From Crossiella sp. CA-258035 (lineage in GTDB: Bacteria; Actinomycetota; Actinomycetes; Mycobacteriales; Pseudonocardiaceae): a stretch of DNA of 64,000 nt. This document shows positions 13,722-38,136 of this stretch, piece after piece. Below the pieces are notes generated by a model. That model worked only from the letters and a program-made list of their open reading frames with translations. It did no database searches and was not told the DNA's origin. The stretch covers positions 5,488,001 to 5,552,000 of the forward strand of contig NZ_CP116413.1 in NCBI RefSeq assembly GCF_030064675.1, written 5' to 3'. Both the position numbers and the translations under genes were made by a program. How positions within the stretch are numbered: the stretch's first letter is position 1; every line of letters starts with the position of its first letter.

Positions 13722-13853
13722 GGCTCCAGCGTGGCCCCGTTTCCTAAGAACTTGCTGTGAGCGGGATAGCTCTTCGCTGTGGCCTCGTCGCAGGCAGGTC
13801 CGGTCACCGGGGCCGGTAAGATCATGGCCAGCAGCGACAGTGGATGAGGCCAG

Positions 13854-14896
13854 ATGACGGACACCGCGCCACAACGGCGAGCACGAGCGACCCGCCCGCC
13901 GACCATCCACGACGTCGCCGCGCACGCCGGCGTCTCCCGCGGCACCGTCTCCCGCGTCCTGCAGGGCGGCCACAACGTCAGCCCCGCCGCCCGGGAAGCC
14001 GTCACCACCGCGATCCGCAAACTCGGCTACGTGGTCAACCGGGCCGCGCGCGCAGCCTGGTCACCCAGCGCGCGGGCTCGGTGGCCTTCCTGCTCTCCGA
14101 GACCCAGGACCGGTTCTTCGAGGACCCCAACTTCACCACCCTGTTGCGCGCCTGCACCACCGCACTCGCCGAGCACGACCTGCCGCTCATCCTGATCACC
14201 GCGGGCACCGAGGCCGAGCGCCGCCGGATCGCGCCCTTCCTGTCCGCGCACCACGTCGACGGCGTGCTGCTGGTCTCCTCGCACCGCGGCAACCCGATGA
14301 TCGACCACCTCCGGCAGGCCAACCTGCCCTTCGTCTGCTGCGGCAAGCCCCTCGGCGAGCGCGGCGCGCTGTCCTACGTCGCCTCCGACGACCGCGAAGG
14401 CGCCAGGACCATGGTGCGCCACCTGCTGGACACCGGCCGCAGGCGCGTCGCGACCATCGCCGGTCCCCAGGACACCCCCGGCGGCCTGGACCGGCTGCAC
14501 GGCTACCGCGAGATGCTCGCCGAGCACGGCATCGCCCAGGACCAGCGGCTGGTCGCGGTCGGCGACTACAGCCGGGCCAGTGGTGAGTCCCGCATGCGAG
14601 AACTGCTGGCCACGGCACCGGATCTGGACGCGGTCTTCGTCGCCTCGGACCTGATGGCGGCGGGCGCGCTGGCCGCGCTCGAGCGGGCCGGCCTGCGCGT
14701 CCCGGAGGACATCGCGGTCGGTGGTTTCGACGACTCCTCGGTCGCCGCCACCACCCAGCCCCCACTGACCACGATCCGGCAGCCCTGGGGCCGGATCAGC
14801 GCGATGATGGTGCGCCAGCTGCTGGCCGAGATCAACGGCGAGGGACCGGCCACGGTCATCCTGCCCACCGAGCTGGTCGTCCGCGAGTCGGCCTGA
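13854..14896 (+). pseudogene. LacI-family regulator interrupted by a frameshift in a CG repeat
   Basis: The first frame starts at ATG 13854 and gives a good LacI HTH (TIHDVAAHAGVSRGTVSRVL) as far as the hinge YVVNRAAR. The +1 relative frame then carries RSLVTQRAGSVAFLLSETQD through a full PBP1-like domain to the end at 14896 (VAVGGFDDSSVAATTQPPLT). The switch falls in CGCGCGCGC (14045-14053). Removing one GC pair, or adding one base, restores the NRAARSLVT hinge seen in the paralogue at 4158. This is either a sequencing error, a null allele or a slippage site. If intact, it would be the local regulator of the cutinase gene downstream. Its ribosome-binding region is GATGAGGCC. Confidence 0.8.
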
Positions 14897-14915
14897 GGCC
14901 TGCCACGACCTACCT

Positions 14916-14929
14916 GTGCACGTTCACAG
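14916..14929. promoter_or_regulatory. Operator-like direct repeat, copy 1
   Basis: GTGCACGTTCACAG; its first 12 bases are a near palindrome (GTGnACGTnCAC). The same 14 bases recur at 15005-15018, 89 bp downstream. Both lie in the 236-bp region between the frameshifted LacI gene and the cutinase gene, which also holds a GTAAG...CTTAC repeat (14959-14974). Confidence 0.5.
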
Positions 14930-15004
14930 AATCCAACCGACATGCCCTTGAAACAATCGTAAGAATACGCTTACATCGAAGCGGTTCGCCGGTAGCACCG
15001 GTCC

Positions 15005-15018
15005 GTGCACGTTCACAG
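15005..15018. promoter_or_regulatory. Operator-like direct repeat, copy 2
   Basis: An exact second copy of GTGCACGTTCACAG. Together with the first copy it brackets the likely promoter of the cutinase gene, an arrangement consistent with looping or cooperative repressor binding. Confidence 0.5.
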
Positions 15019-15050
15019 TCCCGTTCGCCCTCCGCCGGTCATGGGCGATC

Positions 15051-15064
15051 GGAAAGCGCTTTCC
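15051..15064. promoter_or_regulatory. Perfect palindrome, LacI-type operator
   Basis: GGAAAGCGCTTTCC is a perfect 14-bp palindrome with a central CG, the form of LacI-family operators, lying 69 bp before the cutinase start. One-mismatch versions occur at 31985-31998 (before the SGNH esterase) and 38081-38094 (before the rhamnogalacturonan lyase). Confidence 0.65.
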
Positions 15065-15132
15065 GTCGACGAGCCCGATCGCGTTCTGCTGTTCCACATC
15101 TCCGCATTCCGCACAGGAAGAGGTACCGCACC

Positions 15133-16074
15133 ATGCCCGCAGCGTGCCTTGCACCCCAGCGATCCGACGCCGACGCCAGCCGCGGCTCCCGGCTCCCCTT
15201 GCTGCGACGAGCGGCGACCGTCCTCGCCGCCGTCCTGGGCGTCGTCACCTCCGGCGTAGCGGCGGTCCCGGCCTCGGCCGCGGACAACCCGTACCAGCGC
15301 GGTCCGAACCCGACCTCGGCCAGCGTCGCCGCCTCCCGCGGCACCTTCACCACCGCGGAGCTGACCGTCCCGCGCGGGCAGGGCTTCGGCGGCGGGAAGA
15401 TCTACTACCCGACCGACACCAGCCAGGGCACCTTCGCCGCGGTCGCCATCGTGCCCGGCTACACCGCCACCTGGGCCGCCGAAGGCGCCTGGATGGGACC
15501 CTGGCTGGCCTCCTTCGGTTTCGTGGTCATCGGCATCGACAGCAACGGGCGCAACGACTTCGACACCGCGCGCGGCACCCAGCTGCTGGCCGCGCTGGAC
15601 TACCTGACCCAGCGCAGCTCCGTGCGCGGCCGGGTCGACGCCAAGCGCCTCGCGGTGATGGGCCACTCCATGGGCGGCGGCGGGGCACTCGTCGCGGCGC
15701 AGCAACGTCCGTCGCTGAAGGCCGCGGTCGGGCTGGCGCCGTTCAAGCCCTCCGGCCCGCCGAGCGCCGACCGGGTGCCCACGATGGTCATCGCCGGTCA
15801 GCGCGACGGCACCTTCACTCCGTCCTATGTGGACGGTCTTTACCGGGCGATCCCGGCGGCCACGGAGAAGGCGTACCTGGAGTTCGCCGGGGCCGGGCAC
15901 GCCTTCCCGACCCGCCCGAACCCGTTGCAGATGCGGCTGGTGATCCCGTGGCTGAAGAGCTTCACCGACCACGACACCCGCTACCACCAGTTCCTGTGCC
16001 CGCTGAAGGACCGGACCGGCGTCACCGCCTACCGCAGCACCTGCCCGCTCGTGGCGCCCGGAGCCCACGCCTAG
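15133..16074 (+). CDS. Secreted cutinase/PET-hydrolase-type polyesterase (dienelactone-hydrolase fold)
   Basis: 313 residues. A signal peptide ends near ASAA (residue 50), and the mature protein begins DNPYQRGPNPT, as in Thermobifida-type cutinases. The nucleophile Ser179 is in GHSMGGGG, with the acid Asp225 (AGQRDGTFTP) and base His256 (AGAGHAFP). The oxyanion Tyr110 is in PGYTAT. The C-terminus keeps YHQFLCP and RSTCP, whose Cys289 and Cys304 would form the family disulfide. Family members hydrolyse cutin and aliphatic or aromatic polyesters outside the cell. A notable change is Phe204 (LAPFKP) where the substrate-clamp tryptophan usually sits. GGAAGAGG serves as the ribosome-binding site. 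The GH2 gene follows after a 49-bp gap and may be cotranscribed. Confidence 0.9.
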   Translation: MPAACLAPQRSDADASRGSRLPLLRRAATVLAAVLGVVTSGVAAVPASAADNPYQRGPNPTSASVAASRGTFTTAELTVPRGQGFGGGKIYYPTDTSQGTFAAVAIVPGYTATWAAEGAWMGPWLASFGFVVIGIDSNGRNDFDTARGTQLLAALDYLTQRSSVRGRVDAKRLAVMGHSMGGGGALVAAQQRPSLKAAVGLAPFKPSGPPSADRVPTMVIAGQRDGTFTPSYVDGLYRAIPAATEKAYLEFAGAGHAFPTRPNPLQMRLVIPWLKSFTDHDTRYHQFLCPLKDRTGVTAYRSTCPLVAPGAHA

Positions 16075-16123
16075 GCGGGGCGTGCAGCCGATATCAGTGC
16101 AGAGATCACCATGGGATGGTGCG

Positions 16124-19100: not shown

Positions 19101-19207
19101 CCTTCGACCCGGTGCGCACCGGTCACATCCGGCTGGATCTGACCAGTCGCGCACCGGGTACCGGTCGTGGCTTCCTCCGGATCGCGGAAGTGGTGGCCGG
19201 GCGCTAG
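16124..19207 (+). CDS. Secreted GH2 beta-galactosidase-like glycoside hydrolase with C-terminal binding modules
   Basis: About 1027 residues with a signal peptide (RRSWSLLLGCGMLAGLLSAP). The sugar-binding jelly roll (WRNVRLPHDWSI, GWYRKTFTLP, VYMDAEVYLNGKLIGRHPYG) is followed by Ig-like domains and a TIM barrel with NAVRTSHNPP. The acid/base is Glu441 (WSIGNEIPDS) and the nucleophile is probably Glu521 (KFFFESESSS). After the barrel come a galactosidase-type Ig domain (VWAYSNADTVELLLNGKSLG), a bacterial Ig-like domain and a final discoidin-like carbohydrate-binding region (SYSGRADTLPAAMLDGNPAT). It probably removes galactose from plant polysaccharide side chains; beta-galactosidase is a family inference. 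GTG 16082 is an alternative start with a better RBS. The stop overlaps the convergent esterase stop. Confidence 0.85.
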   Translation: MLSKPRARRSWSLLLGCGMLAGLLSAPAVAEPAAAEQIKPAGRTVDFTGGWQFSLVNTTGAEAPQPGAGDPSWRNVRLPHDWSIGLNPVQNAHTTAGTAFLPGGLGWYRKTFTLPPTVAGKKVAVEFDGVYMDAEVYLNGKLIGRHPYGYTGFALDLTPHAHTNGTPDLLSVRARNQIPSSRWYSGSGIYRDVRLTVTDPVHITRHGVTVTTPDLANTIGSGFATMRVQTSAVSENSPAQAEIVATVKDATGKVVGQGTTRAELAAQPRTASTDVRIEQPVLWSAERPHLYTVDTEVRVGGKTVDTVSTRTGIRYFAFHPDNGFSLNGKKSKLKGVNLHHDLGALGSAVSKDAIVRQLQIMKSMGVNAVRTSHNPPAPEFIQACEEMGLLLQIEAFDTWRTPKTQFDYGRFFDAHSSADIREMVHAAKNSPSVVMWSIGNEIPDSTAAIGVPIAKRLIADVRAVDATRPIVMGSDKYRRVPAAGSPQDEIMKLLDGMGLNYNTAASTDALHAAYPTKFFFESESSSSTSTRGHYQDPDQLNTGENFTPGRRNTSSYDNNLETWTYSGEYGLKKDRDRKWFAGQFLWTGIDYLGEPTPYNVFPVKASFFGAVDTAGFAKDFYHLFRSQWTTEPMVHLLPMNWTDHKPGDPVSVWAYSNADTVELLLNGKSLGERKFDTKTTVDGTRYLETTEATGDDKTVTSGRFPGSYTSPNGSAGKLHLTWSVPFQPGRLVAVAKRGGTEVARDELRTAGTPHAIKLTPDRKTTKADGKSHTFVTAEVVDEAGVVVPGADNLISFRVNGGSLAGLDNGRQESAENYQAGSRTAFNGKALAIVRSGQTSPVMQVTASAPGLRSGTAIVAATGASPGAAEPELPAAPTDVAAAPAADASYSGRADTLPAAMLDGNPATAWSNYYLKRATALLPEVSRAHQREWVSVSTSGTGRTGSVAASFVTDAAHALPASIGVSYWDGRAFVPVRNARIEWATGSGQPTRVTFDPVRTGHIRLDLTSRAPGTGRGFLRIAEVVAGR

Positions 19208-20070
19208 CGCAGGTACGAGGCGAGGCCGATCCGCTGGTCGCGCAACGCCTTGGCCACCACGCCGGCGATCCGCTGGGCACCGGCCCGTTCGAAGTGGGTG
19301 TGGTCGTTGCAGAAGAACGCACCCACCGGGCCGGTGTTCCAGTTCCCGTTGTGCGGGCAGAACTTCAGCGAGTTGTACAGGGTGTAGCTCAGCCGGTGCA
19401 GGTCGATCAGCGGCGCCCCGGAGCGGGTGGCCGCGTCCGCGGTCTCCCGGAGGAAGCCACGGCTGCCGACCGCGGTGCCGCCCTGGCAGCGGAGTGCCGA
19501 GACCGGTGTCAGCAGCACCGGGTGCGCGCCGCGGTCCTTGGCCGCCTTGGCCATCATGGACAACAGCTCTTGGTAGCGGGCCGATCCGACGTGCCGGGGA
19601 CAGGACGAACTGCCGTCGTTGATGCCGAACTGGATGATCAGGTAGTCACCCGCCCGCATGCCGGTGGCCGGGTTGAGCATGTCCAGCCAGCGCTTGGCGA
19701 AGGTCTTCGGAGAGACCACGCACTCACCGTCCGGACCCTTGGTGCTCTTGACGTTGGACTCGTACAGCCAGGTCTGCACACTGCGCCCGCCGACGGCGCT
19801 GTTGACCACGGTGGCATCGCCGGTGAACAACGAGCCGAACTGGCTGCCCCAGCCCGCTGGGCAGTTGCCGTTCGGGTTGGCCATTGTGGAGTCACCGGCG
19901 AGCCAGACCTTGATCTTCGGCGCGGCGGCGGTGCTCGCGGCGGGCGCGCAGTCGGCCGCGCGGTCTGGTCCGGTTTGGGCGGCCAGCGCGTCGCCCGCGC
20001 CTGCCGTCAAGGTGAACTGGATGATGAGGACTGCCAGGGGCAGCAGGAGTCGCTTTCGAAAGAAGGTCAT
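19204..20070 (-). CDS. Secreted rhamnogalacturonan acetylesterase-like SGNH hydrolase (CE12 type)
   Basis: 288 residues with a signal peptide (residues 1-30, ending GDALA). Block I is WLAGDSTM (Ser61), block II is VNSAVGGRS, block III is QFGINDGSS (Asn151) and block V is NDHTHFERAG (Asp256, His259). The GDST...VGGRS pattern is that of rhamnogalacturonan acetylesterases, which remove acetyl groups from the pectin backbone outside the cell. Cysteines suggest disulfides. It sits downstream of a LacI gene on the same strand (130 bp gap) and beside the rhamnose operon, which fits a pectin role. Confidence 0.85.
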   Translation of the reverse strand: MTFFRKRLLLPLAVLIIQFTLTAGAGDALAAQTGPDRAADCAPAASTAAAPKIKVWLAGDSTMANPNGNCPAGWGSQFGSLFTGDATVVNSAVGGRSVQTWLYESNVKSTKGPDGECVVSPKTFAKRWLDMLNPATGMRAGDYLIIQFGINDGSSSCPRHVGSARYQELLSMMAKAAKDRGAHPVLLTPVSALRCQGGTAVGSRGFLRETADAATRSGAPLIDLHRLSYTLYNSLKFCPHNGNWNTGPVGAFFCNDHTHFERAGAQRIAGVVAKALRDQRIGLASYLR

Positions 20071-20200
20071 TGTCTCTCCACGGCAGGGGGCCAGGATCAC
20101 GATGACTGTCACCAGCCGGTTTCGCCCTGTCAACGCGCACTGCGCCAGGTGAGCTGGATTCGACTCGGTTCGACCACAGCGCGGGAATGTTCGACGCCGT

Positions 20201-21241
20201 TCAGGATCGCGGCCGACGGCCCCTGCTCACCGTGGTCGAGGCGCGCACCACGAGCTCCGGCTGGAACTTCACGTGCCGGTGCACGTGGTCGGGATCGCCC
20301 TCGGCCTCTTCCAGCAGGAGTTGCGCGGCGGTGCGGCCGAGTTGCTCGCGCGGCTGGCGGACCGAGGTGAGCGGGACGGCCGCGGCGGCGGCGAACTCGA
20401 TGTCGTCGTAGCCCACCACGGCGAGGTCCTCCGGCACGGCCAGGCCCTGCTGGGTCATGGACTGGAGCAGGCCGAGCGCGAGCAGGTCGTTGGCGCAGAA
20501 CGCGGCGGTGGGACGGCGCGCGGACGGCAGGCCCACCAGCCGCTCCCCCGCGCTGCGGCCTTCGGCCACCCGCAAACCCTTGGTCTCCAACAGGGTCAGC
20601 GCGTCGGGCGGCAGACCGGCCTGCGCCAGCGCCCGCAACGCGCCTTCGTGGCGGTCGCGCACCTGCTGGATGGACAGCGGGCCGCCGACCATCGCGATCC
20701 GGGTGTGGCCGGTCTCGATCAGGTGTGTCATCGCCAGCTCGCCGCCGAGCACGTCGTCCACCGCCACCGAGCACCGGGTGCCGTCCTGCGACTCGCGGTC
20801 GACCAGCACCACCGGCGTGCCCCGGCTCAGCAGCTCCGCGAACCGCTCGGCCTCCGCGTCCACCGGCGTGATCAGGATGCCCTCGACCCGCTGTTCGTGC
20901 AGCAGCTCCAGGTACTCGCGTTCGCGGCCGGCGTCGGAGGCGCTGTTGCACAGGTACACCGCGAGGCCGGCCGCCCGCGCGGTGTCCTCCACGCTGCGGG
21001 CCACGTCGGTGAAGAACGGGTTCGCCGCGTCCAGCACCACGTAGGCGATGACCCGGCTGCGACCAGCGCGCAGCTGGCGCGCGGACTCGTTGCGCACGAA
21101 GCCGAGCTCGGAGATCGCGGCCAGCACCCGCAGCCGCGTGGCGGGCGCGACCACCTCCGGCCGGTTCAGCACGTTGGAGACGGTCGCGTTCGAGACGCCG
21201 GCGCGCCGCGCGACCTCGCGGATGCCGACGGCAGGTTTCAC
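20201..21241 (-). CDS. LacI-family regulator, probable repressor of the rhamnose operon
   Basis: 346 residues from GTG with GAGGAG upstream. The HTH is GIREVARRAGVSNATVSNVL with hinge RNESARQLRAG, and the sensor domain ends VAVVGYDDIEFAAAAAVPLT. It is divergent from the rhamnose transport operon with 122 bp between starts, which hold two operator-like sites. Control of the operon in response to rhamnose is inferred from position. It is most similar, within the window, to the regulator at 38214-39236 (same NVLNRPE and VGYDDI wording). Confidence 0.88.
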   Translation of the reverse strand: MKPAVGIREVARRAGVSNATVSNVLNRPEVVAPATRLRVLAAISELGFVRNESARQLRAGRSRVIAYVVLDAANPFFTDVARSVEDTARAAGLAVYLCNSASDAGREREYLELLHEQRVEGILITPVDAEAERFAELLSRGTPVVLVDRESQDGTRCSVAVDDVLGGELAMTHLIETGHTRIAMVGGPLSIQQVRDRHEGALRALAQAGLPPDALTLLETKGLRVAEGRSAGERLVGLPSARRPTAAFCANDLLALGLLQSMTQQGLAVPEDLAVVGYDDIEFAAAAAVPLTSVRQPREQLGRTAAQLLLEEAEGDPDHVHRHVKFQPELVVRASTTVSRGRRPRS

Positions 21242-21256
21242 GAGCAGCTCCTCAGC

Positions 21257-21270
21257 TTGAAACGTGACAG
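21257..21270. promoter_or_regulatory. Operator-like site, LacI-proximal
   Basis: TTGAAACGTGACAG keeps the left half of the TTGAAnCGnTTCAA palindrome and lies 16 bp upstream of the LacI start, where binding would repress the regulator's own promoter. The right half is degenerate. Confidence 0.4.
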
Positions 21271-21336
21271 CGAATCGTACCTCCGTCGTCTTGACACTGA
21301 GCCCCTTCCGCACCCAGGCTGCTCCTAGCCGGACCT

Positions 21337-21363: not shown

Positions 21364-22866
21364 GTGGACCGACCTCCCCTGGTGGCGCTGGACGAGGTGA
21401 GCAAGGCCTTCGGCGCGGTGCGCGCGCTCTCCGGTGTGTCGCTCCAGCTGCTGCCCGGTGAGGCGCACGCGCTGCTCGGGGAGAACGGCGCTGGCAAGTC
21501 GACCCTGATCAAGACGCTGGCCGGGGTGCACCGGCCGGACTCCGGACGGGTGCTGGTCGACGGTCAGCAGCAGCGGTTCGCCGGTCCCGCGGGCGCGCTC
21601 GCCGCGGGCATCGCGGTGATCTACCAGGAGCCGACGCTCTTCGGTGACCTGTCGGTGGCGGAGAACGTGTTCATGGGCCGTCAGCCACTGCGGTTCGGCA
21701 GGCGGGTCGACGTGGCCCTGATGCACGCCCGCACGGAGGAGCTGTTCGCCCGCCTCGGGGTGCGGCTGGACCCGGCGCGGCCCGCGCGCGGGCTCTCCAT
21801 CGCGGACCAGCAGCTGGTGGAGATCGCCAAGGCGTTGTCCTTCGACGCCCGCGTGATCGTCATGGACGAGCCGACCGCGGCCCTGTCCGCGCACGAGGTG
21901 CAGCGACTCTTCGGTGTGGTACGGGCGTTGCGCGAGCAGCGGGCCGCGGTGCTGTTCGTCTCGCACCGGTTGGCGGAGGTCTTCGCGCTGTGCCAGCGGG
22001 CCACCGTGCTGCGCGACGGCGAGCTGGTCTGGTCCGGCCCGCTCGACGGCGAGACGCCGGACTCCCTGGTGCGCCGGATGGTCGGCCGCGAGCTGTCCCA
22101 GCTGTTCCCCGAGCAGGACACCACCGCGGGCGAGGTGCTGCTCTCGGTGCGGCGGCTCACCCGCGAAGGCGTGTTCACCGACGTCTCCTTCGAGGTCAGG
22201 GCGGGCGAGATCGTCGCGCTGTCCGGGCTGGTCGGCGCCGGTCGCAGCGAGGTCGCGCGGGCGGTGTTCGGCATCGACCGGCCCGACGCGGGCGAGGTGC
22301 TGGTGGGCGGTCGGCGGCTGAAACCCGGCTCCCCTGCCGCCGCGATGGCCGCGGGCATCGGGTTCGTGCCGGAGGACCGCCGTCAGCAGGGCCTGGTGAT
22401 GGACGCTTCCATCGAACGCAACACCGCACTCGCCTCGCTGGCCCGGCTGTCCACCTTCGGACTGCTGCGGCGGCGCGGCGAACGCGCGCTGGCCCAGGAC
22501 TGGGCGGTTCGGCTGCGGCTGAAGTTCGCCCGGCTGAGCGACCCGGTGGGCGTGCTCTCCGGCGGCAACCAGCAGAAGGTGGTGCTGGCCAAGTGGCTGG
22601 CCAGAGCGCCTTCGGTACTGATCGTGGACGAGCCCACCCGCGGCATCGACGTGGGCACCAAGGCCGAGGTGCACCGGCTGCTCGCCGAGCTGGCCGCACG
22701 CGGCGTGGCGGTGCTGATGATCTCCTCCGAGCTGCCGGAGGTGCTCGGCATGGCCGACCGGGTGCTGGTCATGCATGAGGGCCGCCTGGCCGAGGAGCTC
22801 TCCCGGGCCGAAGCCACCGAAGAGCGGGTGGCGCTGGCCGCGGCCGGGCGGACGGTGGCCCGATGA
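21364..22866 (+). CDS. rhaT: Rhamnose ABC transporter ATP-binding protein
   Basis: 500 residues from GTG. Two fused ABC ATPase domains are present, as in carbohydrate-uptake (CUT2/RbsA-type) importers. The first has Walker [11 protein letters not shown] and Walker [14 protein letters not shown]. The second has a degenerate Walker A ([10 protein letters not shown]), then LSGGNQQKV and [14 protein letters not shown]. It is the first gene of a tightly packed operon, overlapping the next gene by 4 bp. Assignment to L-rhamnose rests on the catabolic genes that follow; the domain alone would only say sugar. Confidence 0.88.
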
Positions 22867-23897
22867 CGCCACTGACCAAGGCCGCGCCCCGCCTCAGCGC
22901 GGCCCGGCGGCTCAGCGACCGCGTCGGCCGGGTGCGTGAGCTCGGCATCCTGGTCGCGCTCGCGCTGGTGGTGATCCCGACCGCGGTGGTGAACCCGAGG
23001 TTCGTGCAGGCGCAGAGCATCCGCGACCTGCTGCTCAACGCCTCGATCGTGGCGCTGCTCGCGGTTGGCCAAACCCTGGTGGTGGTGACCCGCAACGTCG
23101 ACCTGTCCGTGGGCTCGGTGCTGGGCCTGTCCGCCTTCCTCACCGCGCGGCAGTTCGCCGAGCACCCCGGCACTCCGCTGCTGGTAGGCATCGGGTTCGG
23201 TGTCGCGGTGGGGCTGGCCTGCGGTCTGCTCAACGGCGCGCTGGTCGCCCTCGGCAACGTGCCCAGCCTGGTGGTCACCCTCGGCACCCTGTACGTCTTC
23301 CGCGGCCTGGACTACGCGCTGGCCCAGGGCAGGCAGGTCAACGCGGCGAACCTGCCGGACGCGCTGCTCGACCTCGGCAGCAGCCGGGTGCTGGGCATCC
23401 CGGTGCTGGTGCTGGCCACGGTGCTCATCATCGCGGTCGCCGCGGTGTACCTGCGCTCCTACCGCTCCGGCCGCGAGCTGTACGCGATCGGCTCGAACCC
23501 GCGGGCCGCGGTGCTGGCCGGTATCCCGGTGGCCAGGCGCACACTGACCGCCTTCGCCCTCTCCGGACTCATCGCCGGGCTGGCCGGCGCGCTGTGGGTG
23601 GCCCGCTACGGCACCGTGGACGCGGCCACCGGCACCGGGCTGGAGCTCCAGGTGGTCGCGGCCGTGGTGGTCGGCGGCGTGGCGATCTTCGGCGGCTCCG
23701 GCACGGTGGCGGGCGCGGCGCTCGGCGCGTTGCTGCTGGCCACCATCACCAGTTGCCTGGTGGTGCTGCAGATCCCCGCGTTCTGGCAGCAGGCGATCGC
23801 GGGCGCGCTGCTGCTCAGCGCGATCACCGTGGACCGCCTGCTGGCCATCCGCCTGGGGAAGGCGTTGCGCCGCACCGAAGGGACCAGCCATGCGTGA
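22863..23897 (+). CDS. rhaP: Rhamnose ABC transporter permease
   Basis: 344 residues, with 8-10 hydrophobic segments and the CUT2 permease wording: [59 protein letters not shown] and [17 protein letters not shown]. Starts at an ATGA overlap with the ATPase gene (translational coupling) and overlaps the second permease by 8 bp. It would form the channel with the next gene product. Confidence 0.88.
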
Positions 23898-24864
23898 GTT
23901 CCTGCGCTGGGAGACGGCGCTGGTGGTGCTGTTGCTGGTGGTCGCGGTCACCGGGCAGCTCAGCACCGGCGGCTCGTTCCTAGCCGGTGGCAACCTGTTC
24001 TACCTCGGGCTGGACATCGGCGAGATCGCGCTGATCGCGCTGCCGCTGACGCTGGTCGTGGTGGCAGGCCAGATCGACCTGTCCGTGGCCTCGGTGCTCG
24101 GGCTGTCCAGCGCGCTGGTCGGTGCGCTGTGGAACGCGGGCTGGCCGCTGGAGACGATCCTGCCGTTCGTGGTCGTGGTGGGCGCGGTGTGCGGCGCGGT
24201 CAACGGCCTGCTGGTCACCCGGCTCGGGTTGCCCTCGCTCGCGGTCACCATCGGCACCCTCGCGCTCTACCGCGGCCTGGCGCTGGTGGTGCTGGGCGAC
24301 ACCGCGGTCGCGGACTTCCCGGCGAGCTACACCGCCTTCGGCTCGGCACCGGTGCCTGGCACCGACATCCCCTACCCCATCGCGCTGGCCGCGGTGCTCG
24401 CCGTGCTGTTCGGGATCACGTTGCACGCCAGCTCGTTCGGGCGGTCGGTGTTCGCCATCGGCGCCAACGAGGAAGCGGCCCGCTTCTCCGGCATCCGGGT
24501 CAAGCGGGTCAAGCTGGTGCTGTTCGTGCTCACCGGCGCGGTGGCCGCGGTGGCCGGCATCGTCTACACGTTCCGCTTCTCCAGCGCTCGCGCGGACAAC
24601 GGCTCCGGGCTCGAACTGGCCGTGGTGGCCGCGGTGCTGCTCGGCGGCGTGTCCATCTTCGGCGGCCGGGGATCGCTGTTCGGCGTGCTCGCCGGCGTGC
24701 TGCTGCTGGGGGGTCTGCGCAACCTGCTGATCCTGCGGGACACCTCCACCGAGGTGCTCACCATCGTCACCGGCCTGCTGTTGCTGGTGAGCGTGCTCGC
24801 CCCCTCGATCACCCGGGCCGTGTCCAGCCGACGAGCCGGAAACCCAGGAAAGGCAACGCCATGA
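23890..24864 (+). CDS. rhaQ: Rhamnose ABC transporter permease
   Basis: 324 residues of the same CUT2 permease family as its neighbour (LVVVAGQIDLSVASVLGLSS, LGLPSLAVTIGTLALYRGLA, VVAAVLLGGVSIFGGRGS). Two different permeases plus a fused ATPase are typical of rhamnose importers of the RhaSTPQ type. Couples to the next gene through a 4-bp ATGA overlap. Confidence 0.88.
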   Translation: MREFLRWETALVVLLLVVAVTGQLSTGGSFLAGGNLFYLGLDIGEIALIALPLTLVVVAGQIDLSVASVLGLSSALVGALWNAGWPLETILPFVVVVGAVCGAVNGLLVTRLGLPSLAVTIGTLALYRGLALVVLGDTAVADFPASYTAFGSAPVPGTDIPYPIALAAVLAVLFGITLHASSFGRSVFAIGANEEAARFSGIRVKRVKLVLFVLTGAVAAVAGIVYTFRFSSARADNGSGLELAVVAAVLLGGVSIFGGRGSLFGVLAGVLLLGGLRNLLILRDTSTEVLTIVTGLLLLVSVLAPSITRAVSSRRAGNPGKATP

Positions 24865-26259: not shown

Positions 26260-27414
26260 ATGAGTGTCAAGGCCGCGCTGCGGGAGCAGCGGATCGAGAC
26301 GCCCTCGTGGGCGTACGGGAACTCGGGGACCCGGTTCAAGGTCTTCGCCCAGCAGGGGGTGCCGCGCACGCCGTTCGAGAAGATCGACGACGCGGCGGAG
26401 GTGCACCGGTTCACCGGCATCGCGCCCACGGTGGCGCTGCACATCCCCTGGGACAAGGTTGAGGACTACGGCGAGCTGGCCGGGTACGCGCGGGACCGCG
26501 GCGTCGAGCTGGGCACCATCAACGCCAACGTCTTCCAGGACGACGACTACCGGCTGGGCAGCGTCACGCATCCGGACGCGGCGGTGCGGCGCAAGGCGAT
26601 CGGGCACCTGCTCGAATGTGTCGACATCATGGACCAGACCGGGTCGCGGGACCTGAAGCTGTGGTTCGCCGACGGGCTGAACTACCCCGGCCAGGACAAT
26701 CTCAAGGCCAGGCAGGACCGGCTCGCCGAGGCACTGCACGAGACCTACCAGCGGCTGGGCGCTGATCAGCGGATGTTGTTGGAGTACAAGCTCTTCGAGC
26801 CCGCCTTCTACGCCACCGACGTGCCGGACTGGGGCACCGCGTACGCGCACTGCGTGCAACTCGGTGACCAGGCCCAGGTCGTCATCGACACCGGGCACCA
26901 CGCGCCGGGCACGAACATCGAGTTCATCGTCTCGGTCCTGCTGCGCGCCGGGAAGCTGGGCGCCTTCGACTTCAACTCCCGGTTCTACGCCGACGACGAC
27001 CTGATGGCCGGCGCGGCCGACCCGTTCCAGCTGTTCCGGATCATGCACGAGATCGTGCTGGCCGACGCGCTGAAACCGGCCGCGGGCATCGCGTTCATGC
27101 TCGACCAGTGCCACAACATCGAGCCGAAGATCCCGGCGATCATCCGTTCGGTGCTCAACGTGCAGGAGGCCACCGCCAAGGCGCTGCTGGTCGATGCGGA
27201 GGCGTTGTCGGCCGCGCAGCGCACCGGAGACGTGCTGGCCGCCAACGGCGCGCTGATGGATGCCTACAACACCGATGTCCGGCCACTGCTGCGCGAGCTG
27301 CGCGCGGAGCTGGGCCTGGATCCCGACCCGATGGCGGCCTACCGGCGGTCGGGCTACGCCGAGTGGATCATCCGGGAACGAGTCGGCGGCCAGGCCGCCG
27401 GATGGGGTGCGTGA
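26260..27414 (+). CDS. rhaI: L-rhamnose isomerase
   Basis: 384 residues with AGGAGAG before the ATG. It is a TIM-barrel sugar isomerase of the RhaI type: WAYGNSGTRFKVFAQQGVPR, TVALHIPWDK, MLLEYKLFEPAFYATDVPDW, VVIDTGHHAPGTNIEFIV, LGAFDFNSRFYADDDLM and FMLDQCHNIEPKIPAI. The metal-binding Glu, Asp and His residues are in these blocks. It converts L-rhamnose to L-rhamnulose and is unrelated in sequence to E. coli RhaA. Confidence 0.9.
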   Translation: MSVKAALREQRIETPSWAYGNSGTRFKVFAQQGVPRTPFEKIDDAAEVHRFTGIAPTVALHIPWDKVEDYGELAGYARDRGVELGTINANVFQDDDYRLGSVTHPDAAVRRKAIGHLLECVDIMDQTGSRDLKLWFADGLNYPGQDNLKARQDRLAEALHETYQRLGADQRMLLEYKLFEPAFYATDVPDWGTAYAHCVQLGDQAQVVIDTGHHAPGTNIEFIVSVLLRAGKLGAFDFNSRFYADDDLMAGAADPFQLFRIMHEIVLADALKPAAGIAFMLDQCHNIEPKIPAIIRSVLNVQEATAKALLVDAEALSAAQRTGDVLAANGALMDAYNTDVRPLLRELRAELGLDPDPMAAYRRSGYAEWIIRERVGGQAAGWGA

Positions 27415-27415
27415 G

Positions 27416-29440
27416 ATGAACCAGGTGGCAGCGCTGCTGGGGCGGAGCAACCGGCTCGGCGCGGATCCACGCAACACCAACTACGCCGGCGGCAACACCT
27501 CCGCGAAGGACTCGGCGACCGACCCGGTCACCCAGCAGCCGGTGGAACTGTTGTGGGTCAAGGGATCCGGCGGCGACCTGGGCACGCTCACCGAGGCCGG
27601 GCTGGCCGTGCTGCGGCTGGACCGGCTGCGCGCGCTGGCCGAGGTCTACCCGGGGGTGGACCGCGAGGACGAGATGGTCGCCGCCTTCGACTACTGCCTG
27701 CACGGCAAGGGCGGCGCGGCGCCCTCGATCGACACCGCGATGCACGGCCTGGTGGACGCCGCGCACGTGGACCACCTGCACCCGGACGCGGGCATCGCCT
27801 TCGCCACCGCCGAGGACGGCGAGGAGCTGGTGCGAGCCTGCTTCGGCGACCGGGTGGTGTGGGTGCCGTGGCGGCGGCCCGGTTTCCAGCTGGGGCTGGA
27901 CATCGCCGAGGTGAAGCGGGCCAACCCGCAGGCCATCGGCGTGGTCCTGGGCGGGCACGGGATCACCGCCTGGGGCGAGACCAGCCAGGAGTGCGAGGCC
28001 AACTCGCTGGAGATCATCCAGACCGCGCAGCGCTACCTCGACCAGCACGGCCGCGCCGAACCGTTCGGGCCGGTGACCCACGAACCGTTGCCAGCCAAGG
28101 AACGCCGGGTGCGGGCGGCCGAGCTGGCCCCGGTCATCCGCGGCCTGGCCGCCACCGACCACCCGCAGGTCGGTCACTTCACCGACACCGAGGTGGTGCT
28201 CGACTTCCTTTCCCGGGCAAGGCATCCCGAGCTGGCCGCACTCGGCACCTCCTGTCCCGACCACTTCCTGCGCACCAAGGTCCGGCCGATGGTGCTCGAC
28301 CTGCCGCCGGCCGCGCCCCTGGACGAGGCGATCGCCCGGCTGCGCGAGCTGCACGATGCCTACCGCGCGGACTACCGGGCCTACTACGAGCGGCACGCCG
28401 AGCCGGACAGCCCGCCGATGCGCGGCGCGGACCCGGCGATCGTGCTCGTGCCCGGTGTCGGCATGTTCAGCTTCGGCAAGGACAAGCAGACCGCGCGGGT
28501 GGCCGGCGAGTTCTACCTCAACGCCATCAACGTGATGCGCGGCGCGGAGTCGGTGTCCCGGTACGCCCCGATCGAGGAACGGGAGAAGTTCCGCATCGAG
28601 TACTGGGCGCTGGAAGAGGCGAAGCTGCGCAGGCTGCCCAAGCCGAGGCCGCTGGCCACCAGGGTGGCACTGGTCACCGGTGGCGGCTCGGGCATCGGCA
28701 AGGCGATCGCCCGGCGGCTGGCCGCCGAGGGCGCGTGCGTGGTGGTCGCCGACCGCGACGGCGCGGCCGCGCGGATGGTCGCGGAGGGCATCGGCTCTGC
28801 CGACGTGGCCGTGCCGGTCACCGTCGACGTCACCGACGCGGCGGCGGTCGCCGAGGCGTTCCGCACCGCGGTGCTGGCCTTCGGCGGGGTGGACCTGGTG
28901 GTCAACAACGCCGGGCTGTCGATCTCCAAGTCGCTCGCCGAGACCACCGAGGCGGACTGGGACCTCCAGCACGACGTGATGGCCAAGGGCTCGTTCCTGG
29001 TGTCCCAGCAGGCCGCAAAGGTCATGCGCGGGCAAGGCATGGGCGGCGACCTGGTCTACATCTCCAGCAAGAACTCGGTGTTCGCCGGGCCGAACAACAT
29101 CGCCTACGGCGCGGCCAAGGCCGACCAGGCGCACCAGGTGCGGCTGCTGGCCGCGGAGCTGGGCGCGGACGGCATCCGGGTCAACGGGGTCAACCCGGAC
29201 GGCGTGGTGCGGGGTTCCGGCATCTTCGCCGGTGGCTGGGGCGCCCAGCGCGCGGCGGTCTACGGCGTGCCGGAGGAGGAGCTGGGCGCGTTCTACGCCC
29301 AGCGCACCCTGCTCAAGCGCGAGGTGCTGCCCGAGCACGTGGCGGCCGCGGTGTTCGCGCTCACCGGTGGCGAGCTGTCGCTGACCACCGGGCTGCACGT
29401 GCCGGTGGACGCCGGTGTGGCCGCGGCGTTCCTGCGATGA
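27416..29440 (+). CDS. rhaD: Bifunctional rhamnulose-1-phosphate aldolase/lactaldehyde dehydrogenase
   Basis: 674 residues in two parts. Residues ~1-400 are a class II aldolase with GGNTSAKDSA, AHVDHLHPDAGIAFA (metal-binding His) and VVLGGHGITAWG. From ~415 a short-chain dehydrogenase begins (VALVTGGGSGIGKAIARRLA), with LVVNNAGLS, LVYISSKNSVFAGPNN and the catalytic YGAAK. The aldolase splits rhamnulose-1-phosphate into DHAP and L-lactaldehyde; the second domain would oxidise lactaldehyde to lactate. This fusion is well known in bacterial rhamnose operons. 1 nt after the isomerase stop and 4-bp overlap with the kinase. Confidence 0.9.
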   Translation: MNQVAALLGRSNRLGADPRNTNYAGGNTSAKDSATDPVTQQPVELLWVKGSGGDLGTLTEAGLAVLRLDRLRALAEVYPGVDREDEMVAAFDYCLHGKGGAAPSIDTAMHGLVDAAHVDHLHPDAGIAFATAEDGEELVRACFGDRVVWVPWRRPGFQLGLDIAEVKRANPQAIGVVLGGHGITAWGETSQECEANSLEIIQTAQRYLDQHGRAEPFGPVTHEPLPAKERRVRAAELAPVIRGLAATDHPQVGHFTDTEVVLDFLSRARHPELAALGTSCPDHFLRTKVRPMVLDLPPAAPLDEAIARLRELHDAYRADYRAYYERHAEPDSPPMRGADPAIVLVPGVGMFSFGKDKQTARVAGEFYLNAINVMRGAESVSRYAPIEEREKFRIEYWALEEAKLRRLPKPRPLATRVALVTGGGSGIGKAIARRLAAEGACVVVADRDGAAARMVAEGIGSADVAVPVTVDVTDAAAVAEAFRTAVLAFGGVDLVVNNAGLSISKSLAETTEADWDLQHDVMAKGSFLVSQQAAKVMRGQGMGGDLVYISSKNSVFAGPNNIAYGAAKADQAHQVRLLAAELGADGIRVNGVNPDGVVRGSGIFAGGWGAQRAAVYGVPEEELGAFYAQRTLLKREVLPEHVAAAVFALTGGELSLTTGLHVPVDAGVAAAFLR

Positions 29441-30762
29441 GGGTGACCGTGGCCGCGGTCGACCTCGGCGCGTCCAGCGGGCGGGTGGTCCGGGGGCTGG
29501 CCGGGGACGGCGCGCTGGCGATCGAGGAGGTGCACCGGTTCCCGAACGGGCCGGTGCGCCTGCGCGGGACCCTGCACTGGGACGTGCTCGGGCTGTACCG
29601 GGAAGTGCTCGCCGGTCTGCGCCGGGCCGGCGAGATCGACAGCATCGGCATCGACAGCTGGGCGGTGGACTACGGCCTGCTCGACGAGCGCGGGGCGCTG
29701 CTGGGCAACCCGGTGCACTACCGCGACGCGCGCACCGACGGCATCATCCCGCCGATCGACCCCGACCGGCTGTACCGGCTCAACGGCTTGCAGTTCCAGC
29801 CGTTCAACACGATGTTCCAGCTCGCCGCCGAACCGCTGCTGGCGCACGCGGCGCAGCTGCTGCTCATCCCGGACCTGCTCTCCTACTGGCTGACCGGGGA
29901 ACGCGGCGCCGAGTACACCAACGCGACCACCACCGGCCTCATCGACGTCCGAAGTGGACAGTGGTCGGCGGAGCTGGCGCGCGGTCTGCCGCCGGGGCTG
30001 CTGCCCGATCTCCGCCAGCCCGGCGACCCGGCAGGCGAGCACGAGGGCGTCCCGGTCACCGCGGTCGGCTCGCACGACACCGCCTCGGCCGTGGTCGCGG
30101 TGCCCGCCGAGGGCGAGGCGTTCGCCTACATCTCCTGCGGCACCTGGTCGCTGGTCGGCGTGGAGCTGACCGCGCCGGTGCTGACCGCGGAGAGCAGGGC
30201 GGCCAACTTCACCAACGAGGGCGGGGTGGACGGCACGATCCGCTACCTGCGCAACGTCATGGGCCTGTGGCTGCTCCAGGAATGCCTGCGCTGCTGGGAC
30301 ACCGAACTGGAGCCGGTGCTGCGGGCGGCCGCGGGCGCGCGGGGCTCGGTGTTCGACCCGAACGACCCGGTGTTCCTGCCGCCAGGCGACATGCCCGCGC
30401 GGATCCAACGGTGGTGCCGCGAGGCGGGCGAACGGGTGCCGGAGACGCCCGGTGAGATCGCTCGGTCCATTGTGGACAGTCTCGCACTGGCCCACCGGGA
30501 CGCGGTCGTGGCCGCGCAGCGGTTGTCCGGCAAGGAGGTCGCGGTCGTGCACGTGGTCGGCGGCGGCTCGCGCAACGAACTGCTGTGTCAGCTCACCGCC
30601 GACGCCTGCGGTCTCCCGGTCATCGCGGGGCCTGCCGAGGCGACCGCGCTGGGCAACGTGCTCGTGCAGGCCCGGGCCGCCGGAGCGGTGCCCGGCGCCC
30701 TGGGCGAGCTCAGAGCGCTCGTGCGGGAGACCCAGCCATTGCGGCGCTACCTCCCCCGGTGA
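29437..30762 (+). CDS. rhaB: Rhamnulokinase
   Basis: 441 residues of the FGGY sugar kinase family: AAVDLGASSGRVV at the start, IGIDSWAVDYGLLD, HYRDARTDG, FQPFNTMFQLAA, TAVGSHDTASAVVAVP, AYISCGTWSLVGVE and VVGGGSRNELLCQLTADACG. These are rhamnulokinase-specific blocks. It phosphorylates L-rhamnulose with ATP. Coupled to the aldolase gene by an ATGA overlap. Its 3' end overlaps the convergent LacI gene by 53 bp. Confidence 0.92.
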   Translation: MRVTVAAVDLGASSGRVVRGLAGDGALAIEEVHRFPNGPVRLRGTLHWDVLGLYREVLAGLRRAGEIDSIGIDSWAVDYGLLDERGALLGNPVHYRDARTDGIIPPIDPDRLYRLNGLQFQPFNTMFQLAAEPLLAHAAQLLLIPDLLSYWLTGERGAEYTNATTTGLIDVRSGQWSAELARGLPPGLLPDLRQPGDPAGEHEGVPVTAVGSHDTASAVVAVPAEGEAFAYISCGTWSLVGVELTAPVLTAESRAANFTNEGGVDGTIRYLRNVMGLWLLQECLRCWDTELEPVLRAAAGARGSVFDPNDPVFLPPGDMPARIQRWCREAGERVPETPGEIARSIVDSLALAHRDAVVAAQRLSGKEVAVVHVVGGGSRNELLCQLTADACGLPVIAGPAEATALGNVLVQARAAGAVPGALGELRALVRETQPLRRYLPR

Positions 30763-31762
30763 ACGCCGGGCCGGGCGCGGAGCTGGCGCGGGTGCGCAGT
30801 TTTGGCGGCAGCAGGGTCAGCGCCGGCGTCGGCAGCCCGTTCACCTTCGCCACCAGCAGGTCCACCGCCTGCCGGGCCAGCTCCTCCGCTGGCAGCCGCA
30901 CCGAGGTCAGGAACAGCTGCTCGGCCAGCTCGTCCGGGCAGATGGCGACCACGGCCACGTCCTCGGGCACCCGCCGGCCCAGCGCGCGCAGGCTGCTCGC
31001 GACCCAGCCCAGCGCCGCCTCGTTGTGCACCACCAGCGCGGTCATCGCCGGTTGCGCGCGCAGCAGTGCCCGCGTGCTGATCAGCACCGACTCGTAGTCG
31101 TCCTCGGCGGGCAGCGCGGTGGAGGCGATGCCGCGGCGCATGGCCGCCGCGCCGAAACCCGCCATCGTGCGCTGCGCGTACCCGGTGTTGCGCTGGTACA
31201 CCACGCTCGGCGCGCCGAGGAAGCCGATGTAGCGGTGGCCGAGGTCGGCGAGGTGATCGACGCACCGGGCGGCCGCGGCCTCGAAGTCCAGGTCAACACA
31301 GGTCAGCCCGTTGGTGGTGGCCGGATGCCCGATCAGCACGGAGGGCTGGGCGAGCTGGCGCAGCAGGGGCACCCGCTCGTCGTCCAGCTCCACGTCCATC
31401 ACCAGGAACCCGTCGACCTGGGCGCTGCCCGCGATCCGCCGCAGCCCCTGCGCGCCCTGGTCCGCGGTCACCACCAGCACGTCCAGCTCGTGCCTGCGGG
31501 CCTCGGCGATCGCCGAGGCGACGAACCGCATCAGCACCGGCAGGTACGCCCCGCGACGCAACGGCAGCACCAGCGCCACCACGTTGGTCCGGCTGGTCGA
31601 CAGCGCCCGCCTGCCCGCGTGCGGACGGTAGCCGAGCAGCCGGATGCTCTCGGTGACCCTGGACCGGGTCTGCGCCGAGATCGACCGCCTGCCGGTCAGC
31701 ACGTACGAGACCGTGCTCGGCGCGACACCGGCGTGCCGCGCCACATCCGCGATGGTGACCAC
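30710..31762 (-). CDS. LacI-family transcriptional regulator
   Basis: 350 residues from GTG 31762, chosen because GGAGG lies 7 nt upstream; the open frame runs further but across an operator palindrome. The HTH is VTIADVARHAGVAPSTVSYVL and the hinge is YRPHAGRRALSTSRTNVVAL. The sensor domain is somewhat atypical at its end (VAVVAICPDELAEQLFLTSV instead of the usual GFDD/GYDD block). It is divergent from the SGNH esterase gene across a 329-bp region rich in operator-like palindromes, so it probably controls that gene and itself. Convergent overlap of 53 bp with rhaB. Confidence 0.87.
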   Translation of the reverse strand: MVTIADVARHAGVAPSTVSYVLTGRRSISAQTRSRVTESIRLLGYRPHAGRRALSTSRTNVVALVLPLRRGAYLPVLMRFVASAIAEARRHELDVLVVTADQGAQGLRRIAGSAQVDGFLVMDVELDDERVPLLRQLAQPSVLIGHPATTNGLTCVDLDFEAAAARCVDHLADLGHRYIGFLGAPSVVYQRNTGYAQRTMAGFGAAAMRRGIASTALPAEDDYESVLISTRALLRAQPAMTALVVHNEAALGWVASSLRALGRRVPEDVAVVAICPDELAEQLFLTSVRLPAEELARQAVDLLVAKVNGLPTPALTLLPPKLRTRASSAPGPAFTGGGSAAMAGSPARAL

Positions 31763-31779
31763 GTTGGCACCTCCGTGCG

Positions 31780-31793
31780 TTGAAGCGCTTCGA
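31780..31793. promoter_or_regulatory. LacI-type operator overlapping the LacI promoter
   Basis: TTGAAGCGCTTCGA is one base from a perfect palindrome (TTGAAGCGCTTCAA). It lies 17 bp upstream of the GTG of the LacI gene at 30710-31762, consistent with autoregulation. Confidence 0.6.
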
Positions 31794-31885
31794 CGACTTT
31801 CCGGCCGCTCAGCATGCACGTTCGGAACCGGAAATGTAAGCGCCGAAGGTCAGCGGTTCGACCTGTTCGACCCGGCTCCGTCGAA

Positions 31886-38037: not shown

Positions 38038-38080
38038 GGCGGTTCCTCCTCGCTCCGGCGACTTCCTTACCCTGCAACAT

Positions 38081-38094
38081 GGAATGCGCTTTCC
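38081..38094. promoter_or_regulatory. Third copy of the GGAAAGCGCTTTCC box
   Basis: GGAATGCGCTTTCC differs by one base from the palindrome at 15051-15064. It lies 43 bp upstream of the rhamnogalacturonan lyase start, in the divergent region shared with the LacI gene at 38214. Confidence 0.55.
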
Positions 38095-38136
38095 GCAACG
38101 GGTTGACGTCAGCCCGGCCGCTGCCCTAGCTTGTCT

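What the first reader, a model, noticed from the sequence alone, without database searches (positions are those of the whole stretch)
14897..16074. PET-hydrolase-type cutinase placed inside a pectin/rhamnose utilisation locus
The protein at 15133-16074 has the full Thermobifida-cutinase pattern (NPYxRGPNP start, GHSMGGGG, PGYT oxyanion loop, C-terminal disulfide). It is unusual in having Phe204 where the substrate-clamp Trp normally sits. It is controlled from a region full of LacI-type operators and precedes a GH2 galactosidase. That suggests a coordinated plant-cuticle plus pectin programme and a polyesterase with altered aromatic clamp.
Basis: partly seen in the sequence, partly recalled or inferred. 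Interest (0 to 1): 0.75.

Follow-up and report, generated by a model that had tools for sequence, protein, structure and literature searches.

The report
PETase-like esterase in pectin-degradation locus
A soil actinomycete carries a secreted enzyme of the plastic-degrading (PET hydrolase) family inside a gene set for digesting the hairy regions of plant pectin; its supposedly odd active-site residue turns out to be the rule in its branch of the family, and its neighbours hint at what that branch may do in nature.

Summary
15133-16074 encodes a PF12740 (PETase) serine hydrolase with triad S179/D225/H256, one C-terminal Cys pair, and Phe204 at the clamp-Trp position. It lies behind LacI-type operators and in front of a GH2 gene.

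Phe204 is not an oddity of this protein. In a tree of 83 sequences, all 46 with Trp fall on one side of one branch (100/100); the 37 on the other side (F20, Y9, A7, H1) lack Trp. Solved relatives without Trp exist: 9xv6/9xv7 ("C3 cluster PET hydrolase") and DP043.

The pectin half of the reading is supported, and narrowed to rhamnogalacturonan-I/galactan. In Lentzea, Amycolatopsis and other Crossiella the gene sits in gan-type loci with varying sets of LacI, two CTGTGCACGTTCACAG-type operators 86-90 bp apart, GH53, SGNH esterase and GH42. RG-I marker genes lie in 22 of 35 Trp-less loci but 0 of 44 Trp-type loci. In a follow-up sample, 1 of 23 new Trp-less loci (17 from one genus) was linked, so the linkage is lineage-specific. 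In the window, rhamnose catabolism, a CE2-type esterase and a PL11 lyase follow.

No evidence of cuticle as such was found. The natural ester is unknown. The local LacI frame is broken in this assembly.

The parts
13855..14896 (+). GanR-like LacI-family regulator; HTH part (frame of 13855) and sensor part (frame of the 13844-14896 ORF) lie in different frames in this assembly, break near 14050
   Evidence: sensor domains only in the open frame; 62-96% identical relatives beside cutinases; L009, L013, L023 in frame; window differs by 2 nt in length
14914..14929 (+). operator 1, CTGTGCACGTTCACAG
   Evidence: same pair upstream of relatives
15004..15018 (+). operator 2, CGTGCACGTTCACAG, 89 bp from operator 1
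15050..15065 (.). perfect palindrome CGGAAAGCGCTTTCCG, second LacI-type operator candidate; near-copies precede the CE2-type esterase and the PL11 lyase of this window
15133..16074 (+). PETase-family (PF12740) serine esterase, Trp-less clade, secretion judged by eye; S179, D225, H256, Y110, M180, F204, C289-C304
16124..19207 (+). GH2 beta-galactosidase-like enzyme (open frame from 16082; likely start ATG 16124 judged by eye)
   Evidence: best NCBIfam GalB 667 and GalA 646 bits, both below cut-off 900
19204..20133 (-). SGNH/GDSL esterase, weakly like pectin acetylesterase PaeY
   Evidence: 38.6 bits, cut-off 1000
20201..21313 (-). LacI-family regulator beside the sugar transporter
21364..24864 (+). 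sugar ABC transporter: ATPase and two permeases; a frame that looks like its binding protein follows at 24861
   Evidence: for the binding protein, by eye
26260..27414 (+). L-rhamnose isomerase RhaI (639 bits, cut-off 531)
27260..29440 (+). rhamnulose-1-phosphate aldolase/dehydrogenase RhaD (over cut-off)
30710..31819 (-). LacI-family regulator, divergent from the CE2-type esterase
32092..33093 (+). SGNH esterase with CE2 N-terminal domain; GGAAAGCGCCTTCC about 94 bp upstream
35777..38098 (-). PL11 rhamnogalacturonan lyase; GGAATGCGCTTTCC at its 5' end
38214..39236 (+). LacI-family regulator, divergent from the PL11 gene

Best explanation
A secreted alpha/beta serine esterase of the Trp-less (C3) branch of the PET-hydrolase/bacterial cutinase family. 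It works as an accessory of rhamnogalacturonan-I/galactan breakdown. Shown by sequence: family, catalytic residues, clade, operators, conserved neighbours. Inferred: a GanR-like LacI repressor binds the two operators 89 bp apart, perhaps by looping; galacto-oligosaccharides released from RG-I side chains relieve it; the esterase then cuts ester bonds (cutin/suberin-type polyester, or acyl groups on the pectin) that shield the polysaccharide; PL11, GH53/GH2 and SGNH deacetylases process the chain, and rhamnose is imported and catabolised. In this assembly the local LacI is frame-broken, so either the strain is derepressed there, another LacI acts, or the break is a sequencing error.
For: Family, fold and triad. 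Trp-less clade 37 rows, Trp side 46 rows, 100/100; the residue rule held in 33 of 33 further regions (24 Trp-less at 59% identity or more, 9 Trp at 57% or less; 3 of the 33 repeat first-set contigs). Neighbours: a LacI 80-96% identical lies upstream on the same strand (directly, or with a whole or remnant GH53 between) in L009, L013, L021, L023, L024, L026, L028, L030, L032, and in L198 at 84%. GH53 lies between LacI and cutinase in L021, L030, L032, with pieces of it in L013, L023, L028, L009. At least one of GH53/PL11/SGNHc5/GH42 lies in 22 of 35 Trp-less loci against 0 of 44 Trp loci (one-sided Fisher 7.5e-11, not corrected for kinship). Seed-free Pfam tally of immediate neighbours of up to 1100 aa: GH53 10, RGL11 6, GDSL 6, LacI 5 of 65 proteins (first 25 of 60 families shown), against none of these among the first 25 of 78 families for 83 control neighbours. 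Operator pair 86-90 bp apart upstream of 14 of 36 Trp-less genes; any site in 16 of 36, against 0 of 45 controls. In its own genome the only exact copies of the 14-mer outside the window form a pair 88 bp apart before an SGNH esterase, 79% identical to the one downstream of the cutinase in L013. CBM tails: 30 of 36 Trp-less proteins carry 75 or more extra residues, 0 of 45 controls more than 23; 21 of 37 match ricin-B/CBM13 and 6 of 37 CBM2. Precedent: B. subtilis GanR binds paired inverted repeats, inducer galactobiose (PMC5472308, passages).
Against: In the follow-up sample only 1 of 23 new Trp-less loci (L198) had these markers; 17 of the 23 come from one genus, and 5 of the 6 others were unlinked too. 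13 of 35 loci of the first set show none of the markers. The window's own genome has no GH53 match. The window's LacI is frame-broken. The window protein lacks the CBM. The supposed sugar-binding protein of L013 matched no Pfam family at 1e-5. No substrate, expression or binding data exist here. The LacI-to-operator assignment rests on proximity and conservation.
Confidence: 0.6

Rival explanations
1. Esterase of pectin itself: the Trp-less clade removes feruloyl, acetyl or other acyl esters from RG-I or its galactan/arabinan side chains, and cutin or PET activity is a by-product.
For: Conserved partners act on RG-I and galactan, not on cutin. CBM13/CBM2 tails point to polysaccharide as the anchoring surface. 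The cleft is altered against Trp-type cutinases.
Against: SGNH esterases in the same loci already look like deacetylases, though only weakly by model score. The fold and cleft are those of polyesterases, and the Trp-less relative DP043 is reported as a PET hydrolase (PMC12455559, section 16 and passages; its activity value was not seen). No assay.
Confidence: 0.3
2. Ordinary soil cutinase/lipase whose place in the pectin locus is incidental; the first reader's programme is a coincidence of neighbourhood.
For: Most follow-up Trp-less loci and 13 of 35 of the first set are not linked by the markers used. GH2, SGNH and rhamnose-side genes recur as a set only in Crossiella L009.
Against: 22 of 35 against 0 of 44 loci, eight genera; operator pair at conserved spacing 14 of 36 against 0 of 45; GH53 remnants show that the LacI-cutinase order outlived the loss of GH53 between them.
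Confidence: 0.2
3. Relic: in this strain the regulator is broken and GH53 lost, so the module is decaying and the cutinase is constitutive or unused.
For: Frame break in LacI; no GH53 match in the genome; missing CBM; the first part of the PL11 frame also looks out of frame.
Against: The cutinase frame, the operators and the GH2 frame are intact; cutinase and GH2 are 92-94% identical to those of Crossiella sp. SN42, whose LacI is in frame. Two frame breaks in one 64-kb window may be assembly errors.
Confidence: 0.15

Closest known systems
C3 cluster PET hydrolases (PDB 9xv6, 9xv7)
   Same: Nearest solved sequences (430 and 423 bits, 259 residues aligned), same GLAPF clamp region, same triad and Cys pair
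   Different: No paper on them was found in the library; that 'C3' comes from the cluster framework of Seo et al. 2025 is my guess (seen only as a citation); activity of the window protein unknown; genomic context of those two not examined
DP043 from Actinoplanes sp. DH11 (PDB 9o9w; PMC12455559)
   Same: Nearest fold match (TM-scores 0.94-0.97, 62% identity); no Trp at the clamp (GNAPY); reported as a PET hydrolase
   Different: Tyr in place of Phe; PGLNGTW oxyanion loop in place of PGYTATW
Type I bacterial cutinases (TfCut2, Cut190, BgP, PETase SM14)
   Same: Fold, GHSMG, oxyanion loop, C-terminal Cys pair
   Different: They carry Trp at the clamp (W181 in SM14; Trp155/Trp201 in BgP/Cut190). 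The Trp-type genome sequences compared here mostly have an HFAPN-like loop after the catalytic His, no long C-terminal tail, and no RG-I marker neighbours
gan galactan-utilisation operon with GanR (Bacillus subtilis; PMC5472308)
   Same: LacI-family regulator beside the operon, paired inverted repeats at the promoter, endo-galactanase, beta-galactosidase, sugar transporter parts (Lentzea and Amycolatopsis loci)
   Different: Actinomycete version carries a PETase-family esterase and SGNH esterases; operators 86-90 bp apart with another sequence; in the window no GH53 or GH42 lies beside it

Membership tests
PF12740 PETase / bacterial cutinase-like PET hydrolase | Pfam model over curated cut-off | tested here: met
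   290 bits, cut-off 28
PF12740 PETase / bacterial cutinase-like PET hydrolase | Ser-Asp-His triad and GxSxG in register | tested here: met
   S179, D225, H256 aligned in all 83 sequences
PF12740 PETase / bacterial cutinase-like PET hydrolase | C-terminal disulfide cysteines | tested here: met
   C289 and C304 invariant; the bond itself not tested
Type I PET hydrolase (Thermobifida type) | Trp in the substrate clamp | tested here: not met
   Phe204; the whole 37-row clade lacks Trp
Type I PET hydrolase (Thermobifida type) | PET or polyester hydrolysis | not testable with these tools
   no assay; relative DP043 is reported as a PET hydrolase (PMC12455559)
C3 cluster / Trp-less clade | groups with 9xv6/9xv7 and has a non-Trp clamp | tested here: met
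   best PDB hits, GLAPF shared; clade support 100/100 on genome sequences (PDB chains were not in that tree)
bis(hydroxyethyl) terephthalate hydrolase (NF051441) | score over curated cut-off | tested here: not met
   331.6 bits, cut-off 520
gan-type galactan locus | LacI regulator with paired operators at the target promoter | tested here: inconclusive
   operators met; LacI present but its frame is broken in this assembly; binding untested
gan-type galactan locus | GH53 endo-galactanase | tested here: not met
   no match in G000; present in L009 of the same genus and in L198
RG-I utilisation locus | rhamnogalacturonan lyase plus rhamnose catabolism in the same region | tested here: met
   PL11 at 35777-38098; RhaI and RhaD over cut-off

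The most novel reading that the evidence does not exclude
The Trp-less branch of the PET-hydrolase family did not arise as a cutinase for the plant surface. In the gan-type lineages it is a pectin-side-chain esterase: its cleft was reshaped (Trp lost, Phe moved one place after the catalytic His) for esters carried on RG-I/galactan, most members are anchored by a carbohydrate-binding tail, and it is switched on by galactan fragments. PET hydrolysis by this branch would then be a by-product of a pectin esterase.
Probability: 0.27. Interest if true: 0.75.

Novelty: new variant of a known kind. Interest (0 to 1): 0.5.

Why it matters
What PET hydrolases do in nature is largely guessed. A branch of the family that in several lineages shares an operator pair and a locus with galactanase and rhamnogalacturonan-I genes gives a concrete, testable natural substrate class and an inducer to try. 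It also shows that one organism keeps both types: a Trp-type cutinase at C1:4065103 and this Trp-less one. For enzyme engineers, it says that the clamp Trp divides the sampled family cleanly in two, and that Trp-less enzymes with carbohydrate-binding tails are worth assaying on pectin-rich walls.

Tried and rejected
Rejected: Phe204 as a singular feature. Rejected: GH2 and rhamnose-side genes as the conserved partners; as a set they recur only in L009. Considered and weakened: RG-I linkage as a rule for the whole clade; the follow-up gave 1 of 23 new loci. Considered: bis(hydroxyethyl) terephthalate hydrolase family; below cut-off. Promoter and terminator scan of 14800-16300 gave no promoter-like site and one terminator-like site on the minus strand (shuffle mean 0.5). 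Literature: three searches for a published link between PET hydrolases or cutinases and galactan/RG-I loci listed nothing whose title or abstract start states it, and searches for the C3 cluster listed no paper on 9xv6/9xv7; the library lacks most subscription journals. The search on cutin-pectin links and the one on galactan regulators (apart from PMC5472308) were read in the listing only. PMC11485624 was seen in passages and gave nothing on the clamp.

Rows dropped before counts: L002 (the window copy), three hits (G320, G326, G278) were not fetched. G182 (L197) has the contig length of L012, and L208 and L209 have those of L056 and L043, so they are taken as repeats. Control genes were the Trp-type ones among the best 79 loci, so they are the nearest Trp-type relatives and not a random sample. 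Marker seeds for one search came from Trp-less loci and the window; repeat the comparison without seeds, on immediate neighbours of up to 1100 aa only, with the first 25 families shown. Gene calls in the scripts use open frames and codon-position GC, not a trained gene finder.

Full report
Observation. Pfam gives PETase PF12740 at 290 bits. The nearest solved sequences are 9xv6 and 9xv7, deposited as 'C3 cluster PET hydrolase', then 9xv5/9xv8 and 9o9w. The AlphaFold model (35-row alignment, pLDDT 92) matches 9o9w at TM-scores of 0.94-0.97 and PHL7, Cut190 and TfCut entries at 0.91-0.96, depending on the length used. Ser179, Asp225, His256 and cysteines 289 and 304 are in register in all 83 aligned sequences. 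That the N-terminal stretch is a signal peptide is judged by eye.

The clamp. Clamp positions in the literature: W181 in PETase SM14 and W185 in IsPETase (PMC12117601, section on structural features); Trp155 in BgP, equivalent to Trp201 in Cut190, whose mutation lowers activity (PMC9039725, passages). Of 83 sequences (the window, 36 proteins of 35 loci at 58% identity or more, 45 proteins of 44 loci and the own-genome paralogue at 54% or less), 46 have Trp and sit on one side of a branch with support 100/100; the 37 others have F 20, Y 9, A 7, H 1. In 33 further regions, all 24 at 59% identity or more have F, Y, A or G and all 9 at 57% or less have Trp (one of the 24 and two of the 9 repeat first-set contigs). 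So a non-Trp residue is the rule of this clade. Most of the clade also has HGFPT or a near form after the catalytic His where most Trp-type sequences have HFAPN or a near form, so an aromatic residue moves one place. Solved members exist; DP043 (9o9w), with GNAPY at this place, is reported as a PET hydrolase, chosen from the most performant first-round enzymes (PMC12455559, section 16 and passages; its activity value was not seen).

Context in the window. Upstream is a LacI-family gene; downstream a GH2 beta-galactosidase-like gene, an SGNH esterase, a second LacI, a sugar ABC transporter, RhaI and RhaD over their curated cut-offs, an SGNH esterase with a CE2 N-terminal domain and a PL11 rhamnogalacturonan lyase at 35777-38098. 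Two more LacI genes stand divergent from the CE2-type and PL11 genes. This is a rhamnogalacturonan-I utilisation region.

Conserved partners. The upstream LacI recurs beside the cutinase in other genera: 80-87% identical in Amycolatopsis vastitatis and Lentzea, 96% in Crossiella sp. SN42, 62% in Allorhizocola, where it lies downstream. GH2, SGNH, second LacI and transporter recur together only in L009; L027 has a GH2 homologue at 76% and L017 an SGNH homologue at 69%. In Lentzea L021, L030 and L032 a GH53 endo-galactanase lies between LacI and cutinase; L013, L023, L028 and L009 keep pieces of it, so the LacI-cutinase order survived its loss. L009 has a GH53 directly after the cutinase, which the window lacks. 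L198, another Crossiella species, has LacI, operator pair, cutinase, GH53, SGNH and GH43 in a row. GH42 lies on the other side of the LacI in L013, L023, L028, L030 and L032, with transporter permeases in L023 and L024; the supposed binding protein of L013 matched no Pfam family.

Statistics. At least one of GH53, PL11, the SGNH type of L013, or GH42 at 40% identity or more lies in 22 of 35 Trp-less loci, from 8 of 10 genera, and in 0 of 44 Trp-type loci (one-sided Fisher 7.5e-11, kinship not corrected). Genera with both types include Crossiella, Amycolatopsis, Micromonospora and Streptomyces. A seed-free Pfam tally of immediate neighbours agrees (GH53 10, RGL11 6, GDSL 6, LacI 5 of 65 proteins; PucR, LuxR, SDR and TetR families lead among 83, with no pectin family among the first 25 of 78). 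The follow-up was less kind: of 23 new Trp-less loci, 1 had the markers, and of 9 Trp loci none; 17 of the 23 are from one unnamed genus, g60. Of 23 genomes searched, 17 have GH53 and 22 have PL11, but GH53 lies beside the cutinase only in G182 and G016. The link is therefore a property of some lineages, the window's among them, and not of the whole clade.

Operators. CTGTGCACGTTCACAG or a near copy occurs twice, 86-90 bp apart, upstream of 14 of 36 Trp-less genes; one or more sites in 16 of 36, and 0 of 45 controls. L010, L011, L019, L020 and L054 have the pair without an adjacent close LacI. In the own genome the 14-mer has 3 exact copies and two at one mismatch; four of these five make two pairs: this promoter, and C1:4449622/4449710 in front of an SGNH esterase that is 79% identical to the one after the cutinase in L013. 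The fifth, at 3479178, lies at the start of a sugar kinase, aldolase and L-arabinose isomerase run. At up to 2 mismatches there are 63 strand-matches, against 6 for the reversed control pattern. The palindrome GGAAAGCGCTTTCC has 13 sites at up to 1 mismatch in the genome, control 0; three are in the window, before the cutinase, the CE2-type gene and PL11; another precedes a GH30 gene upstream of a PL11; others stand by unrelated-looking genes. Different LacI proteins may share such sites, so this is weaker evidence. B. subtilis GanR, a LacI-type repressor, binds paired inverted repeats at the gan promoter and answers to galactobiose (PMC5472308, passages).

CBM. 30 of 36 Trp-less proteins have 75 or more residues after the catalytic domain, 0 of 45 controls more than 23. 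21 of 37 match ricin-B/CBM13 and 6 of 37 CBM2. PMC12455559 reports that CBM13-bearing PET hydrolases form one branch and suggests cutin or suberin near carbohydrate; that this is the same branch is my inference. Window, L009 and L010 have no such tail.

The LacI frame. The window's LacI reads HTH and sensor in two frames, with a length difference of 2 nt against L009, L013 and L023. The PL11 frame also looks wrong in its first part (by eye). Either may be assembly error.

Verdict. An established enzyme kind in a setting that narrows its natural role. Most likely: a secreted polyesterase-type hydrolase serving RG-I/galactan breakdown, controlled by a GanR-like repressor. Whether it cuts cutin-type polyester or esters on the pectin is open.

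Noticed in passing
window 13855-14896: LacI regulator upstream of the cutinase is split over two frames in this assembly, whereas relatives in SN42, Lentzea L023 and Amycolatopsis L013 are in frame.
   Followed up: partly
window 35777-38098: PL11 lyase: the C-terminal domain is found, the N-terminal RGI_lyase domain is not, and the first part of the translation looks out of frame.
   Followed up: no
L013 9436-9861, L023 and L028 between LacI and cutinase: Internal deletions of the GH53 gene that leave its ends behind, different in each locus.
   Followed up: partly
G000:C1:4449622-4449723 (L117 13622-13723): Second operator pair in the genome, before an SGNH esterase 79% identical to that of L013: a distant member of the same putative regulon.
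   Followed up: yes
G000:C1:3764603-3770000 (L006, L192): Another RG-I-like cluster: GH30, PL11, an alpha/beta hydrolase and a GH43-like frame; in SN42 L010 a PL11 and a similar-looking hydrolase stand beside a further Trp-less cutinase (likeness of L006 by eye).
   Followed up: partly
L200, L201, L226-L229: Trp-less relatives with Gly at the clamp column (pairwise alignment, could be a shifted gap); 4 of these 6 lie near an SGNH gene of the L010 type at 37-39% identity.
   Followed up: no
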